From Mumia flava (GTDB taxonomy: Bacteria; Actinomycetota; Actinomycetes; Propionibacteriales; Nocardioidaceae), in the NCBI RefSeq assembly GCF_002797495.1, contig NZ_PGEZ01000004.1, positions 1 to 64,000 on the forward strand: a stretch of DNA of 64,000 bases, read 5' to 3'. Under the pieces are notes generated by a model that did no database searches, was not told where the DNA came from, and worked only from the letters and a program-made list of their open reading frames with translations. Shown here piece by piece: positions 42,478-47,389 of the stretch. Both the position numbers and the translations under genes were made by a program. Positions within the stretch are counted from its first letter, which is position 1; each line of letters opens with the position of its first letter.

Positions 42478-43038
42478 GTGGCGAAGAAGCAGAAGCAGGC
42501 GAAGAAGACCAAGAAGTCCGCTGCCGACAAGGTCGAGGAGGCGCTGCGGGAGCGGATCGCCGAGCTGGAGAAGGCGCTCGACGACACCACCCGCCGGCTC
42601 AAGAAGGCACGCAAGGACGCCGAGGCAGCGCGCGCCGACGCCGAGAAGGCGATCCGCAAGACCGCGAAGTCCGCACAGAAGCGGATCGTGGACTCCGCCG
42701 AGGCGGCCCGCGCCGAGCTCGCCAAGCTGGCCGAGACAGCGGTCCGGCGAGCGGACTCGGCCAGGCAGGCCGCGAGCGAGGCGAGCGCGACGGCGTCCGC
42801 CCCCACGGAGGCCGCACCGACCAAGAAGGCGTCCGCGACCAAGAAGGCGTCACCGACCAAGAAGGCGTCACCGACCAAGAAGGCGTCACCGACCAAGACG
42901 GCGCCGCCCAGCAGGGCGACCTCCGCGTACGGCGACATGACCGTCGCCGAGCTGCGCAAGGCCGCACGGGCGCAGGGCGTCAAGAACTACTCGCGGATGA
43001 ACAAGGGCGCGCTCGTCGCCGCGCTCCAGTCCTCCTGA
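42478..43038 (+). CDS. Lysine-rich histone-like protein with C-terminal Rho-N domain
   Basis: A 186-residue basic protein. N-terminal half is a long charged coiled-coil helix (LRERIAELEKALDDTTRRLKKARKDAEAARADAEKAIRK), then an 18-bp-repeat-encoded linker of four KKASPT/KKASAT units, then a Rho termination factor N-terminal (SAP-like) domain MTVAELRKAARAQGVKNYSRMNKGALVAAL. The basic repeat and coiled coil suggest DNA or RNA binding, as in the lysine-rich HupB-like tails. GTG 42478 follows GGGAGGACAC. Confidence 0.82.
   Translation: MAKKQKQAKKTKKSAADKVEEALRERIAELEKALDDTTRRLKKARKDAEAARADAEKAIRKTAKSAQKRIVDSAEAARAELAKLAETAVRRADSARQAASEASATASAPTEAAPTKKASATKKASPTKKASPTKKASPTKTAPPSRATSAYGDMTVAELRKAARAQGVKNYSRMNKGALVAALQSS
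42823..42894. repeat. 18-bp tandem repeat encoding KKASPT units
   Basis: Four consecutive 18-base units AAGAAGGCGTCACCGACC (first unit with three substitutions) encode Lys-Lys-Ala-Ser-Pro-Thr. Copy number could vary by slippage without breaking the frame. Confidence 0.9.
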
Positions 43039-43072: not shown

Positions 43073-43921
43073 TCACGTCTCGTCAGGTCGACGCGCGTGC
43101 ACGACCGCCCAGGAGAGCGCCATGTCGGCGACCTCCTCCCACCCCGGCTCCCCGCAGGTCCAGTGCGACCGCTCGGGGAACACGTGGAACTCCGTCACCG
43201 CGTCGGACTTGCGGTAGTGCTTCGCGTTCGACTTGTTCACCGAGGCCGGCATGATGTGGTCGCGACCGCCCGCGATGAACAGCAGCGGCGCCCGGTCGTC
43301 GTTCGCGTAGTCGACCCAGGTCTCCTGGTGACCCGGCTTGAGGTTCGCGAAGAGCCCGTAGTCCCACACGAACGATCCCGGAGCCGGGATGTGGTAGCGC
43401 TCGTAGACCGCGTCCGACTCCTCTCGGCTCAGCGTGTTCGTGAACGCGTAGTGGAACTGTGCGGGCGTGAACCCCGCCGCCCGGTGCCGGGTCGCGGGGT
43501 TCTTCAGGATCGGGAACAGCGACTTGGCCTGCGACGGCGGGTTGACCCGCACACCCTCGGTCGGCGCGGAGTCGATCACGACCGCGGAGCACCCGAGCCC
43601 CCGAGCGAGCAGCAGCTGCGTCAGCGTGCCGCCGAACGAGTGGCCCATGATGATCGGCGGTGCGTCGAGCTCGGCGATCATGGCGGCGATGTGGTCGACA
43701 ATCGCGGGCACCTTCTGCTCGGCGATCACGTCGGGGTTCTCCCGCAGCGCCTCGACCTCGATCTCGAATCCCGGGTAGCCGGGTGTCAGGACGCGGTACC
43801 CCTGCGCCTCGTAGTGCGTCACCCAGTGCTCCCAGCTGCGCGGCGTCATCCACAGTCCGTGGACGAGGACGACGGTGTCGGGACTGAGCGGGGTCGGCGG
43901 TTCGGTGGTCGGATCGGTCAT
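43073..43921 (-). CDS. Alpha/beta-fold hydrolase
   Basis: A 282-residue protein with a complete catalytic triad: nucleophile GHSFGG (oxyanion HGLWMTP upstream), Asp in FIAGGRDHIMPASVN and His in FPERSHWTC. The substrate class is unknown; the fold resembles small-lipase or haloperoxidase-type hydrolases. It follows the truncated hydrolase gene by 39 bases on the same strand, as if one had been duplicated from the other, but they share little sequence. Confidence 0.82.
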   Translation of the reverse strand: MTDPTTEPPTPLSPDTVVLVHGLWMTPRSWEHWVTHYEAQGYRVLTPGYPGFEIEVEALRENPDVIAEQKVPAIVDHIAAMIAELDAPPIIMGHSFGGTLTQLLLARGLGCSAVVIDSAPTEGVRVNPPSQAKSLFPILKNPATRHRAAGFTPAQFHYAFTNTLSREESDAVYERYHIPAPGSFVWDYGLFANLKPGHQETWVDYANDDRAPLLFIAGGRDHIMPASVNKSNAKHYRKSDAVTEFHVFPERSHWTCGEPGWEEVADMALSWAVVHARRPDET

Positions 43922-43960: not shown

Positions 43961-44542
43961 TCAGGTGGCGAGAAACGCGAGCAGGTCGGTGGTGAGGCGG
44001 GAGGCATGGGTCTCGGGCAGGCGGTGCGACGCGCCGGCGTACACCAGCAGGCGGGCACGCGGGATCCGCTCGGCGTACTGCGCGCCGCCGAGCGCGAGCG
44101 GCACCACCTCGTCGTCGGTGCCGTGCACGACGAGCGTCGGCACGTCGAAACGATCGAGGTCGGCCAGGGAGGAGAGGACGGCCGAGACGAGCACGATCTG
44201 GGCGAGTCTGTCGGTGCCGTGCCGCCGAACGTGCCGCGCGACCTCCCCACCGCCGGTGGCGTACCCGACGAGGGTGGCGTCGCGCAGGTCGAGGAGCCCG
44301 ATCAGGCGGGCGAGGCCGTCCACGACGGTGTCGTGGACGGTGCCGGCCGCGCCGGGCGCGCGCGACCGGGGACGGCGGTGGTCGTGCGCGACGGCACGGT
44401 AGCCACGCGCGGCGAGCGCGCGCTGCTGCACCGCCCACGGGCCCGCGTCCAGCGGCCACCCGTACGAGAGCACGACGGGGCGGCCGTCGCCCTGCTCCGT
44501 GTAGGAGATCTCGGCGCCGTCGTCGGCGACCACCGTGCCCAT
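43961..44542 (-). CDS. Degenerate chloroperoxidase-like alpha/beta hydrolase, probably inactive
   Basis: A 193-residue protein that aligns with cofactor-free haloperoxidases (usually about 275 residues) at both ends but lacks about 70 residues of the cap. VVLSYGWPLDAGPW corresponds to the oxyanion strand, but the nucleophile elbow reads GYATGGG where GHSMGG or GHSTGG is normal: Ser is replaced by Ala (codon GCC). Asp (HGTDDEVVPL) and His (GASHRLPE) remain. ATG 44542 is chosen for its GGGGTGG; GTG 44551 is possible. Likely a pseudo-enzyme or decaying gene. Confidence 0.6.
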   Translation of the reverse strand: MGTVVADDGAEISYTEQGDGRPVVLSYGWPLDAGPWAVQQRALAARGYRAVAHDHRRPRSRAPGAAGTVHDTVVDGLARLIGLLDLRDATLVGYATGGGEVARHVRRHGTDRLAQIVLVSAVLSSLADLDRFDVPTLVVHGTDDEVVPLALGGAQYAERIPRARLLVYAGASHRLPETHASRLTTDLLAFLAT

Positions 44543-44620: not shown

Positions 44621-47389
44621 CTACGAGATCCGCTCGGCCGCGTCGAGCGTCCCGGCGAGCTCGCGCCGGCTGGTGACGCCGAGCTTGCGGAAGACCTTGC
44701 GCAGGTGGAAGTCCACCGTGTGCGGGCTCAGGAGCAGGGCCGCCGCGATCTCGGCGTTGGTCGACCCCGCCGCCGCCATCGCCGCGACGGTGGCCTCCCG
44801 TGCCGTCAGGTCCGAGGTCCGGGTGGGCCCGGCTGCGTCTCCCGGGCCCTCGGTGCCGCCGCTGGCGAGCAGCTCGCGGCGGGCACGCTCCGCGAAGCGC
44901 ACCGCGCCCATCCGCTCGAAGACCCCCAGCGCTCCCCGTAGCTGGAACCGGGCGTCGGCGCGCCGACGCCGCCGCAGGAGCCACTCGCCGTACAGCAGCC
45001 TCGCACGGCCGAGGGCGGCGAGGTTCCGCGTGGGCTCGAGGATCTGGACCGCCTCGCGGAAGGCGACCTCGGTCTCGTCGTCGGTCGCGACCAGCGCCCG
45101 ACCGACCGCGGCGAGCCCGCGGGCCCAGGTGGTCGGCGAGGCGGCGGCGATGGACTCGAGCCGCACGAGCGCGCGCCGGGCCTCCTCGTCGCGCCCGGTG
45201 AAGACCGCGGCCTCGACCAGGTTCACGAGGGCGCGCTGCGCGACCTGGAGATGGTTCTGCTCGACGATGCCGGCGGACAGGCGGTACGAGGTCTCGTAGT
45301 CACCAGCGCACGAGGCGAGCAGCGCGGACGCGGCCCGCGCCATCGTCTCCGCCCCGCCGAGGCCGAGCGCCACCGCCGCCTGCCCGGATCGTTCGATCTG
45401 AGCCTCGAGATCGGGTCCGCGGCCGCACCAGGCGAGGTACTCGACGTTCTTGAACATCTCCTGCTGGTCGGGGGTCAGGCCGATCGCGTCGCGGACCTGG
45501 CCGACCTCGGCGAGCAGACGCCCGGCCGACTCCAGCTGCCCGATGTCGGCCTCGGTCAGGGAGCGCACCCACAGGAAGACGTCGAGCGGGTAGAGCGCAC
45601 CGGCCGCCCGCGCCACCTCGGCGCTGCGGGTCAGGATCGTCGTCCGCGCGTCGTCGTCGAGCAGCCCGGTCGCGAGCACCATCCCGAGCATGCCGAGCTC
45701 GAGCAGCTCGGTGGGGCTCACCCGATCCGACGCGATCGCGTCGACCGCCGCGCGCATCTGCGGTGCTGCGACCTCGTACGGGTCGAGCGCGAAGGACGCG
45801 AGCGCAGCCAGCGCCGTCCCCGCGACGTCCCTCGGCTCCTCGCCGACGATCTCGCGGATCGTCGTCGCGGCCTCCTCGACGGAGCAGCCGCGCATCATCC
45901 ACTCGGCGCCGCCGAGGTTCGACGCGCAGCGCACGAGCGCCTCCCGTGCCCGTACCGGGTCGGAGGCCTCGAACGCCCGCGCGGCGCGCAGGTACATCGC
46001 GGGCACGTCGGCGCTGGCGTCCGCGAGTCCGGAGTAGACGTGCACGGCAGCGCGGACCATGAGGCTGCGGCCCAGCCCGACCGGGTCGAGCTCCGTCTCC
46101 TCGAGCGACGCGAGCAGCCGGCTCGCCTGCACCGGCGCCCCACCGATCGCCGCCGCCTCGGCGGCCGCGAGCGTACGGTCGATCCTCGCCGGCCCCGCCG
46201 GGGTGAGCTCGACGGCCCGGACCAGGAAGGACACCCGCGCGGAGTAGCCGCCCCGGTCGCGCGCCCGGTCGGCCGCCCGCGCGAGGACGCCGGCCACGTG
46301 CTCGTCCGGCTCGACCCGGCTGGCGCCGAGGTGCCAGGCCCTGCTGTCCTCGTCGACCGGGTCGGTGGTCACGGCGGCGAGCGCGTCGTGGACCCGACGC
46401 CGGTCCTCGGTGTCGGCGGCGCCGTACACGGCGGAGCGGACCAGAGGGTGGCGGAACCGCACCCGGCCCCGGGTGCGGACCAGGCCGGTCTCCTCGGCCG
46501 CACGCACGTCCGACGGATCGATGCCGAGGGCGGACGCGGCGGCGCTGACCCGGGCGAGGTCACCGCTCGGCTCGGCCGCGGCCAGCAGCAGCCAGGTCCG
46601 GCTGCCCGTGCCCAGCTCGCCGACCCGCTCCAGGTAGTGCGACTCCAGCCGGCCCCCGAGCGGCAGCGGGTCCGGGAGCGTGGCACCGCCGGAGAGCTGG
46701 TCACCGCCGAGCTCGTCCCCGAGGTCGAGGATCGCCAGCGGTACGCCGCGGGTCGCCTCCACGATGCGGCCGGCGATCACCGGGTCGAGGTCGCCGGCGA
46801 CCGAGCGCGACAGGAGCTCGTGGGCCGCGGCGTGCTCGAGACCCTCCAGACGCAGCTCCGGCAGGCCGGCCAGCGCCGCCACCGCGATCGACGTGCGGGC
46901 TGCCAGCACCATCGAGACCCGGTCGGCGTGGATGCGGCGGGCGACGAACGTGAGCGCGTCGAGCGACTCCTGGTCGAGCCACTGGACGTCGTCGACGACA
47001 CAGACGATCGGCCGGTCGTGCCCGGCCTCGGCGAGCAGCGTCAGGGTCGCCAGGCCGACCAGGTGGCGATCGGGCGGCGGGCCCGCCTCGAGCCCGAGCG
47101 CGACCCGCAGCGCGGCGCGCTGGATCTCCGGCATCGCCGAACCGAGCGCGCGGTACCTCAGGAGGAGCCGCTGAAGTCCGGCGAAGGCGAGTCCGGCCTC
47201 GGTCTCGACACCGAGGAGGCGCACCACCTGGAGCCCGTCGACACCGTCGGCCAGATCGTCCAGCAGTGCCGTCTTGCCGACTCCCGGGTCACCCCGGACG
47301 ACCAGGACCTCGCCGAAGCCCTCGGCCGCCGATGCGGCGACCGCTGCCAGGCGTTCACGTTCGGCCACCCGGCCGACGAGCGCGTTCAC
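44621..47389 (-). CDS. LuxR-family (LAL) transcriptional regulator with ATPase
   Basis: A 922-residue large ATP-binding regulator. Walker A GDPGVGKTALL is at residues 33-41 and Walker B VCVVDDVQWLD follows; the middle is a long helical region, and the C-terminal LuxR helix-turn-helix reads LTAREATVAAMAAAGSTNAEIAAALLLSPHTVDFHLRKVFRKLGV. LALs bind promoters of operons in response to unknown ligands and usually regulate the gene next to them; the secreted protein upstream on the other strand is the nearest candidate. GTG 47389 is 6 bases after TAGGGT. Confidence 0.88.
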   Translation of the reverse strand: MNALVGRVAERERLAAVAASAAEGFGEVLVVRGDPGVGKTALLDDLADGVDGLQVVRLLGVETEAGLAFAGLQRLLLRYRALGSAMPEIQRAALRVALGLEAGPPPDRHLVGLATLTLLAEAGHDRPIVCVVDDVQWLDQESLDALTFVARRIHADRVSMVLAARTSIAVAALAGLPELRLEGLEHAAAHELLSRSVAGDLDPVIAGRIVEATRGVPLAILDLGDELGGDQLSGGATLPDPLPLGGRLESHYLERVGELGTGSRTWLLLAAAEPSGDLARVSAAASALGIDPSDVRAAEETGLVRTRGRVRFRHPLVRSAVYGAADTEDRRRVHDALAAVTTDPVDEDSRAWHLGASRVEPDEHVAGVLARAADRARDRGGYSARVSFLVRAVELTPAGPARIDRTLAAAEAAAIGGAPVQASRLLASLEETELDPVGLGRSLMVRAAVHVYSGLADASADVPAMYLRAARAFEASDPVRAREALVRCASNLGGAEWMMRGCSVEEAATTIREIVGEEPRDVAGTALAALASFALDPYEVAAPQMRAAVDAIASDRVSPTELLELGMLGMVLATGLLDDDARTTILTRSAEVARAAGALYPLDVFLWVRSLTEADIGQLESAGRLLAEVGQVRDAIGLTPDQQEMFKNVEYLAWCGRGPDLEAQIERSGQAAVALGLGGAETMARAASALLASCAGDYETSYRLSAGIVEQNHLQVAQRALVNLVEAAVFTGRDEEARRALVRLESIAAASPTTWARGLAAVGRALVATDDETEVAFREAVQILEPTRNLAALGRARLLYGEWLLRRRRRADARFQLRGALGVFERMGAVRFAERARRELLASGGTEGPGDAAGPTRTSDLTAREATVAAMAAAGSTNAEIAAALLLSPHTVDFHLRKVFRKLGVTSRRELAGTLDAAERIS

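What the first reader, a model, noticed from the sequence alone, without database searches (positions are those of the whole stretch)
43961..44542. Haloperoxidase-like hydrolase with its nucleophile Ser replaced by Ala and the cap missing
Asp and His of the triad and both ends of the fold are present, but the elbow is GYATGGG and about 70 residues of cap are lost. The frame stays open, so it may be a binding or regulatory protein and not decaying DNA. The neighbouring hydrolase at 43073 is intact.
Basis: seen in the sequence. Interest (0 to 1): 0.5.

Follow-up and report, generated by a model that had tools for sequence, protein, structure and literature searches.

The report
Cap-less, serine-less haloperoxidase-like pseudoenzyme
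One bacterial genome carries a shortened copy of a common hydrolase that has lost its catalytic serine, much of its active-site loop and its whole lid, yet is predicted to keep its fold; it is probably a dead enzyme kept as a folded protein, though recent decay is not excluded.

Summary
The minus-strand frame 44542-43961 (193 aa) is a cofactor-free haloperoxidase/arylesterase relative with GYATGGG for G[H/F]STGGG, one in-frame 81-residue deletion of the cap, and Asp144/His173 kept. All 53 other distinct homologues gathered keep Ser and 268-279 residues, among them copies at the same locus in two congeners; so this is a change in one lineage, not a conserved pseudoenzyme family in the sets searched. 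AlphaFold2 with a 17-row alignment gives the core fold (pLDDT 91.0); from the sequence alone it gives no confident model (41.9). The end branch is about ten times the median, and changes cluster in the active-site loop (3 of 2000 permutations). In the core, neutrality is rejected under two of four composition models, weakly under a third, not under the fourth. I judge a retained non-catalytic folded protein somewhat likelier than a dying gene. An open frame alone proves little here. What it would bind is unknown.

The parts
43961..44542 (-). Cap-less haloperoxidase-fold pseudoenzyme, 193 aa plus stop
44462..44464 (-). Tyr27 in place of the invariant His of the HGWP (oxyanion-side) motif
44315..44380 (-). 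Residues 55-76: active-site loop where 12 of 16 clade-invariant residues are changed (R55H, G57R, H58P, G59R, R60S, S61R, Q63P, W65A, N68T, M70H, A74V, D76G)
44243..44266 (-). Nucleophile elbow GYATGGGE; Ala95 at 44258-44260 replaces Ser
44147..44176 (-). Deletion junction: linker LSSLADLDRF (residues 123-132) where relatives have 81 more residues (the cap)
44111..44113 (-). Asp144, triad acid, kept
44024..44026 (-). His173, triad base, kept
43073..43921 (-). Intact alpha/beta hydrolase, downstream partner gene (GHSFGGT elbow), 39 nt after the pseudoenzyme
44621..47389 (-). LuxR-family AAA regulator 78 nt upstream; groups 100/100 with the regulators near intact haloperoxidases in G001, G005 and G163

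Best explanation
A lineage-specific pseudoenzyme. An ordinary capped haloperoxidase/arylesterase, encoded between a LuxR regulator and a second hydrolase, lost its nucleophile, its HGWP histidine, most of its GHGRS loop and its cap (shown by comparison). It is most likely still made as a compact, minimal alpha/beta-hydrolase core (inferred from the model). It should be unable to form the acyl-enzyme (inferred from loss of Ser), so if it acts it acts by binding: either a small acid or ester in the now open pocket, or a protein partner such as the co-directional hydrolase at 43073 (speculative, untested).
For: Ser, HGWP His and cap are lost together while 53 of 53 other distinct homologues gathered keep Ser and full length (His invariant in 36 of 36). 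Model pLDDT 91.0, pTM 0.89 with eight strands; Z 27.4 to chloroperoxidase F over 189 residues and Z 24.8 to 3bdi, a 207-residue hydrolase. Over a nucleotide distance of 0.285 to L027 there is one net indel, in frame, and no stop. GC by codon position .804/.521/.938, GC3 equal to the LuxR neighbour's. Of 103 residues invariant in the closest clade, 12 of 16 in loop 55-76 are changed against 17 of 87 elsewhere; the best scan window is reached in 3 of 2000 permutations. Codon models: core (158 codons) omega 0.20-0.21 and omega of 1 costs 7.2-8.0 log units with position-specific compositions; active-site set (34 codons) omega 3.6, not distinguishable from 1. With omega fixed at 1 the active-site set needs 1.7 substitutions per codon and the core 0.63-0.65, hard to explain by equal recent decay. 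The adjacent hydrolase shows no such acceleration: end branch 0.28 against 1.27.
Against: Seen in one genome only; no second copy with the change in the sets searched. The omega values average over the time before and after the loss. With a flat composition at 70% GC, neutrality is not rejected in the core (twice the difference 0.9) nor over all 192 codons (omega 1.08); at 80% it is rejected only weakly in the core (5.1). Those models fit the core about 6-14 log units worse than the best. Earlier runs with fewer relatives were mixed: a neutral phase with equilibrium GC 0.7-0.8 fitted better than constraint at background composition. Among clade-invariant columns the changed share does not fall with conservation in the wider family: 10 of 33, 13 of 53, 6 of 17, as decay would give. 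Loop 55-76 was picked after seeing the changes. AlphaFold with homologues in the alignment does not reliably sense destabilising changes (general knowledge), and the single-sequence model failed (pLDDT 41.9). No expression data.
Confidence: 0.52

Rival explanations
1. Recent decay: a fast-diverging but functional enzyme lost its cap and nucleophile and is now drifting; the frame is open because stops are rare in 73% GC DNA.
For: Found in a single genome; GC1 and GC2 raised relative to the eight homologues tabulated; stop-free frames are not rare under neutrality, 5-31% at 60-80% equilibrium GC and 42-53% at 90%; even spread of changes over conservation classes; flat-GC neutral models not or only weakly rejected.
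Against: No stop and no frame-breaking net indel; GC3 of 0.938 or more arises in at most 0.3% of neutral simulations at 60-70% GC, though in up to 22% at 80% and up to 92% at 90%; changes are clustered along the chain; within the same branch the core has changed less than the active-site set.
Confidence: 0.36
2. It is still an enzyme with another mechanism, using the kept Asp-His pair without a serine, for example water activation in an exposed pocket.
For: Asp144 and His173 are kept while many other invariant residues are not; the pocket would be open without the cap (inference).
Against: The HGWP His, most of the GHGRS loop and the nucleophile are lost; no homologue of this kind among the 54 gathered.
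Confidence: 0.07
3. Assembly or sequencing error created the deletion and the Ser change.
For: Only one assembly was available; reads could not be inspected.
Against: The divergence is spread over the gene, 44% amino-acid difference from L027 with an open frame, which error would not make; the genome is listed as 99.75% complete with 0.09% contamination.
Confidence: 0.02

Closest known systems
Cofactor-free (non-haem) haloperoxidases / arylesterases: chloroperoxidase F (1a8s), P. fluorescens esterase (1va4, 3hea), bromoperoxidase A1 (1a8q), P. putida esterase (1zoi)
   Same: Core fold and sequence: E 1.2e-48 to 1a8s; Z 27.4 with 49% identity over 189 residues to 1a8s and Z 29.0 to 1zoi; Asp and His positions
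   Different: No nucleophile Ser, HGWP His changed, most of the GHGRS loop changed, 81-residue cap missing
Small hydrolases such as 3bdi (Ta0194, CIB-like, 207 residues)
   Same: Size and compact core (Z 24.8 over 188 residues)
   Different: 20% identity; a separate lineage, and as far as I recall a Ser hydrolase
Laboratory Ser-to-Ala mutants of related hydrolases (CumD S103A 1iup, DxnB2 S105A 4lxh, LJ0536 S106A 3pf9)
   Same: Same substitution at the nucleophile; those proteins fold, and some entry titles state bound ligands
   Different: Made on purpose in otherwise normal, capped enzymes (caps recalled, not checked)
Known non-catalytic alpha/beta-hydrolase-fold proteins (neuroligins, thyroglobulin domain, NDRG; recalled)
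   Same: Fold kept, catalysis lost, binding role
   Different: Eukaryotic, conserved families; kinship not tested

Membership tests
Cofactor-free haloperoxidase / arylesterase | Alpha/beta hydrolase core with family sequence similarity | tested here: met
Cofactor-free haloperoxidase / arylesterase | Ser-Asp-His triad with G-x-S-x-G-G elbow | tested here: not met
   Ala95 for Ser; Asp144 and His173 kept
Cofactor-free haloperoxidase / arylesterase | Helical cap between strands 6 and 7 | tested here: not met
   81-residue deletion
Cofactor-free haloperoxidase / arylesterase | Esterase or perhydrolase activity | not testable with these tools
   no assay
Pseudoenzyme (folded, non-catalytic, functional) | Catalytic residue lost | tested here: met
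Pseudoenzyme (folded, non-catalytic, functional) | Folded product | tested here: inconclusive
   high-confidence model with alignment, failed from the single sequence
Pseudoenzyme (folded, non-catalytic, functional) | Kept by selection | tested here: inconclusive
   core: neutrality rejected under two composition models, weakly under one, not under one; clustering 3 of 2000; one genome only
Pseudogene | Disabled reading frame (stop or frameshift) | tested here: not met

The most novel reading that the evidence does not exclude
A bacterial two-hydrolase gene pair in which the first enzyme has been turned into a cap-less, serine-less minimal binding protein, kept for a new role such as sensing a ligand or partnering the adjacent hydrolase, after losing cap, nucleophile, HGWP histidine and active-site loop as a set.
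Probability: 0.3. Interest if true: 0.55.

Novelty: new variant of a known kind. Interest (0 to 1): 0.32.

Why it matters
If kept, it would be a natural, compact case of an enzyme losing its chemistry and lid while the core stays, with intact relatives in the same gene arrangement as controls for asking what cap and nucleophile do for fold stability and binding. If decaying, it is a caution that an open frame in GC-rich genomes says little about function.

Tried and rejected
Conserved family of such proteins: looked for and not found. Protein searches covered overlapping sets of 6 (E 1e-20), 245 (1e-25), 391 (1e-36), 396 (1e-34) and 394 (1e-34) genomes; at most 8-13 first-look candidates per genome were scored, so a much diverged cap-less relative could be missed. 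The GxATGGGE DNA pattern hit 10 of 341 genomes of the family; the other 9 lie in frames that do not read as hydrolases (judged by eye). IMG/VR with this protein or with the G001 homologue found nothing; with a homologue alignment it gave 8 full-length homologues. Genome contigs gave 12 distant hydrolases. Plasmids gave 739 records, all under 60% identity; the 20 shown each cover 88-96% of the query in two pieces.

Compensated frameshift in loop 55-76: the DNA of residues 55-70 keeps 44-54% identity in register to eight relatives against a mean of about 0.33 for segments taken from elsewhere in the gene, and reading the other frames by eye gave no better match (DNA); so I do not favour it.

Close kinship to the congeners' copies alone: grouping with L008 and L009 is rejected (p-AU 0.011); grouping with the wider 13-row clade is not (p-AU 0.316). 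The LuxR tree likewise puts another genus's copy (L085) nearer to the congeners than the window's, so the locus may have moved between lineages.

Sigma-70 promoter and terminator scan: none found, uninformative for such a genome. Literature: the searches gave listings only, with no paper in 51, 74 and 77; no paper was opened, and none listed reports such a protein in its title or abstract start.

(first codon model, nine sequences) suggested that neutrality is strongly rejected; two searches showed that this depends on the composition assumed; one search uses eleven sequences and is the one I rely on. Its active-site set includes residues chosen after seeing the data.

Full report
What is there. 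The minus-strand frame from ATG 44542 to the stop at 43961 encodes 193 residues. Pfam places it in Abhydrolase_1 above the curated cut-off, and the closest solved chain is the cofactor-free chloroperoxidase F, E 1.2e-48. In an alignment with 36 homologues it has Ala95 where all 36 have the nucleophile Ser, Tyr27 where all 36 have the His of HGWP, changes at most of the DRRGxGxS loop, and a gap for the cap. Relative to each of the eight closest relatives there is one deletion of 81 residues and no other net length change. Asp144 and His173 are kept; that these are the triad acid and base follows from known family motifs.

Neighbourhood. The gene lies 39 nt before an intact 282-aa hydrolase (43921-43073) and 78 nt after a LuxR-family AAA regulator (47389-44621), all on the minus strand. 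The haloperoxidase-hydrolase pair recurs in 5 of 7 fetched neighbourhoods (G001, G005, G033, G243, G163), each with a full-length haloperoxidase; the regulator is upstream in three of them (G001, G005, G163); in the other two neighbourhoods (G002, G004) the hydrolase has no haloperoxidase beside it. A TetR gene sits at the locus in G001, G005, G002 and G004; none was found in the window with that query. The window's regulator groups with those of the three intact loci at 100/100.

Is the change shared? Not in what was searched. 57 distinct homologous frames at E 1e-30 or better to the G001 protein reduce to 54 after I dropped one second copy (L083, the same gene as L027) and two cut off by locus ends (L062, L063, the same genes as L008 and L009). 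53 have Ser at the elbow and span 268-279 aa; only the window copy has Ala and 194 residues in the envelope. For L027 the script's motif search caught an upstream string; its true elbow, GFSTGGG, is read. The GxATGGGE pattern occurs in 10 of 341 family genomes, and only the window's hit is in a hydrolase. In the protein searches every listed match other than the window's own lies in an open frame of at least 274 codons and ends at query residue 124-145, where the cap begins in relatives.

How fast has it changed? In the 54-row tree its end branch is 1.27 changes per column against a median of 0.12 (1.41 against 0.11 with 37 rows). The adjacent hydrolase has an end branch of 0.28 in a tree whose median is 0.19, so the acceleration is not shared by that neighbour. 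In the 15 nearest homologues 98 covered columns are invariant; 28 are changed here, against 0-3 for each of the 15 in leave-one-out.

Kept or dying? For constraint: no stop and no frame-breaking net indel over a nucleotide distance of 0.285 to L027; codon-position GC of .804/.521/.938; 12 of 16 clade-invariant residues changed in loop 55-76 against 17 of 87 elsewhere (Fisher p 2.9e-5), with 3 of 2000 permutations reaching the best scan window. In a codon model with 11 sequences and position-specific compositions, all 192 codons give omega 0.33-0.34 (background 0.10) and omega of 1 costs 4.6-5.1 log units; the core (158 codons) gives 0.20-0.21 (background 0.11) and omega of 1 costs 7.2-8.0; 34 active-site codons give 3.6, not distinguishable from 1. 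For decay: with flat neutral compositions the core rejects omega of 1 weakly (80% GC) or not (70% GC), and all codons together give omega 1.08 at 70%, though those models fit worse; with fewer relatives a neutral GC-rich phase beat constraint at background composition; the changed share does not fall with conservation, 10 of 33, 13 of 53 and 6 of 17; and 5-31% of neutral simulations at 60-80% GC have no stop (nucleotide difference reached there 0.21-0.28, a little under the observed). Chance frames of 502 and 761 aa on the opposite strand of this locus make the same point. I weigh all this as slightly favouring retention.

Can it fold? With an alignment of 17 sequences (itself, 8 haloperoxidases from IMG/VR, 7 distant hydrolases and the neighbouring hydrolase) AlphaFold2 gives pLDDT 91.0 and pTM 0.89 with eight strands; confidence is lowest in residues 51-70 (block means 73 and 59), around the changed loop. 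Without an alignment it gives 41.9 and 0.33. The model matches the P. putida esterase 1zoi at Z 29.0, chloroperoxidase F at Z 27.4 (rmsd 1.7, 189 residues) and the 207-residue hydrolase 3bdi at Z 24.8 (rmsd 2.3, 188 residues). Several Ser-to-Ala mutants of related hydrolases are among the solved structures, so that substitution need not prevent folding. The linker LSSLADLDRF, with a short helix at 126-129 in the model, connects strands 6 and 7, so loss of the cap need not break the sheet.

Mechanism. Shown by comparison: loss of nucleophile, HGWP His, most of the loop, and cap. Inferred: no acyl-enzyme can form; the core folds. Speculative: it acts by binding, either a small acid or ester in the open pocket or a partner protein such as the downstream hydrolase.

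Verdict. A real, striking but single-genome pseudoenzyme-like gene of a common family: new variant of a known kind, modest interest.

Noticed in passing
G000:C2:988621-991359 with 991472-992311; G000:C1:337701-340433 with 342405-343202: The same genome has two further cases of a LuxR-family AAA regulator within about 2 kb of a haloperoxidase-like hydrolase (GFSMGTGE type), so this pairing recurs.
   Followed up: partly
window, about 42480-43038 (+): Lys/Ala-rich protein with a repeated KKASPT stretch and a C-terminal end that looks Rho-N-like (by eye).
   Followed up: no
L083:5736-6653 and L084:8324-9307: In G033 and G243 a third, apparently exported hydrolase (GHSYGGA) lies directly before the haloperoxidase-hydrolase pair, next to an AraC-like regulator (names by eye).
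   Followed up: no
L069, L070, L071, L072: A TetR gene sits at the locus in four congeners but was not found in the window.
   Followed up: partly
L064 (G004:C10:757182-759896): A LuxR-family regulator match with one in-frame TAG.
   Followed up: no
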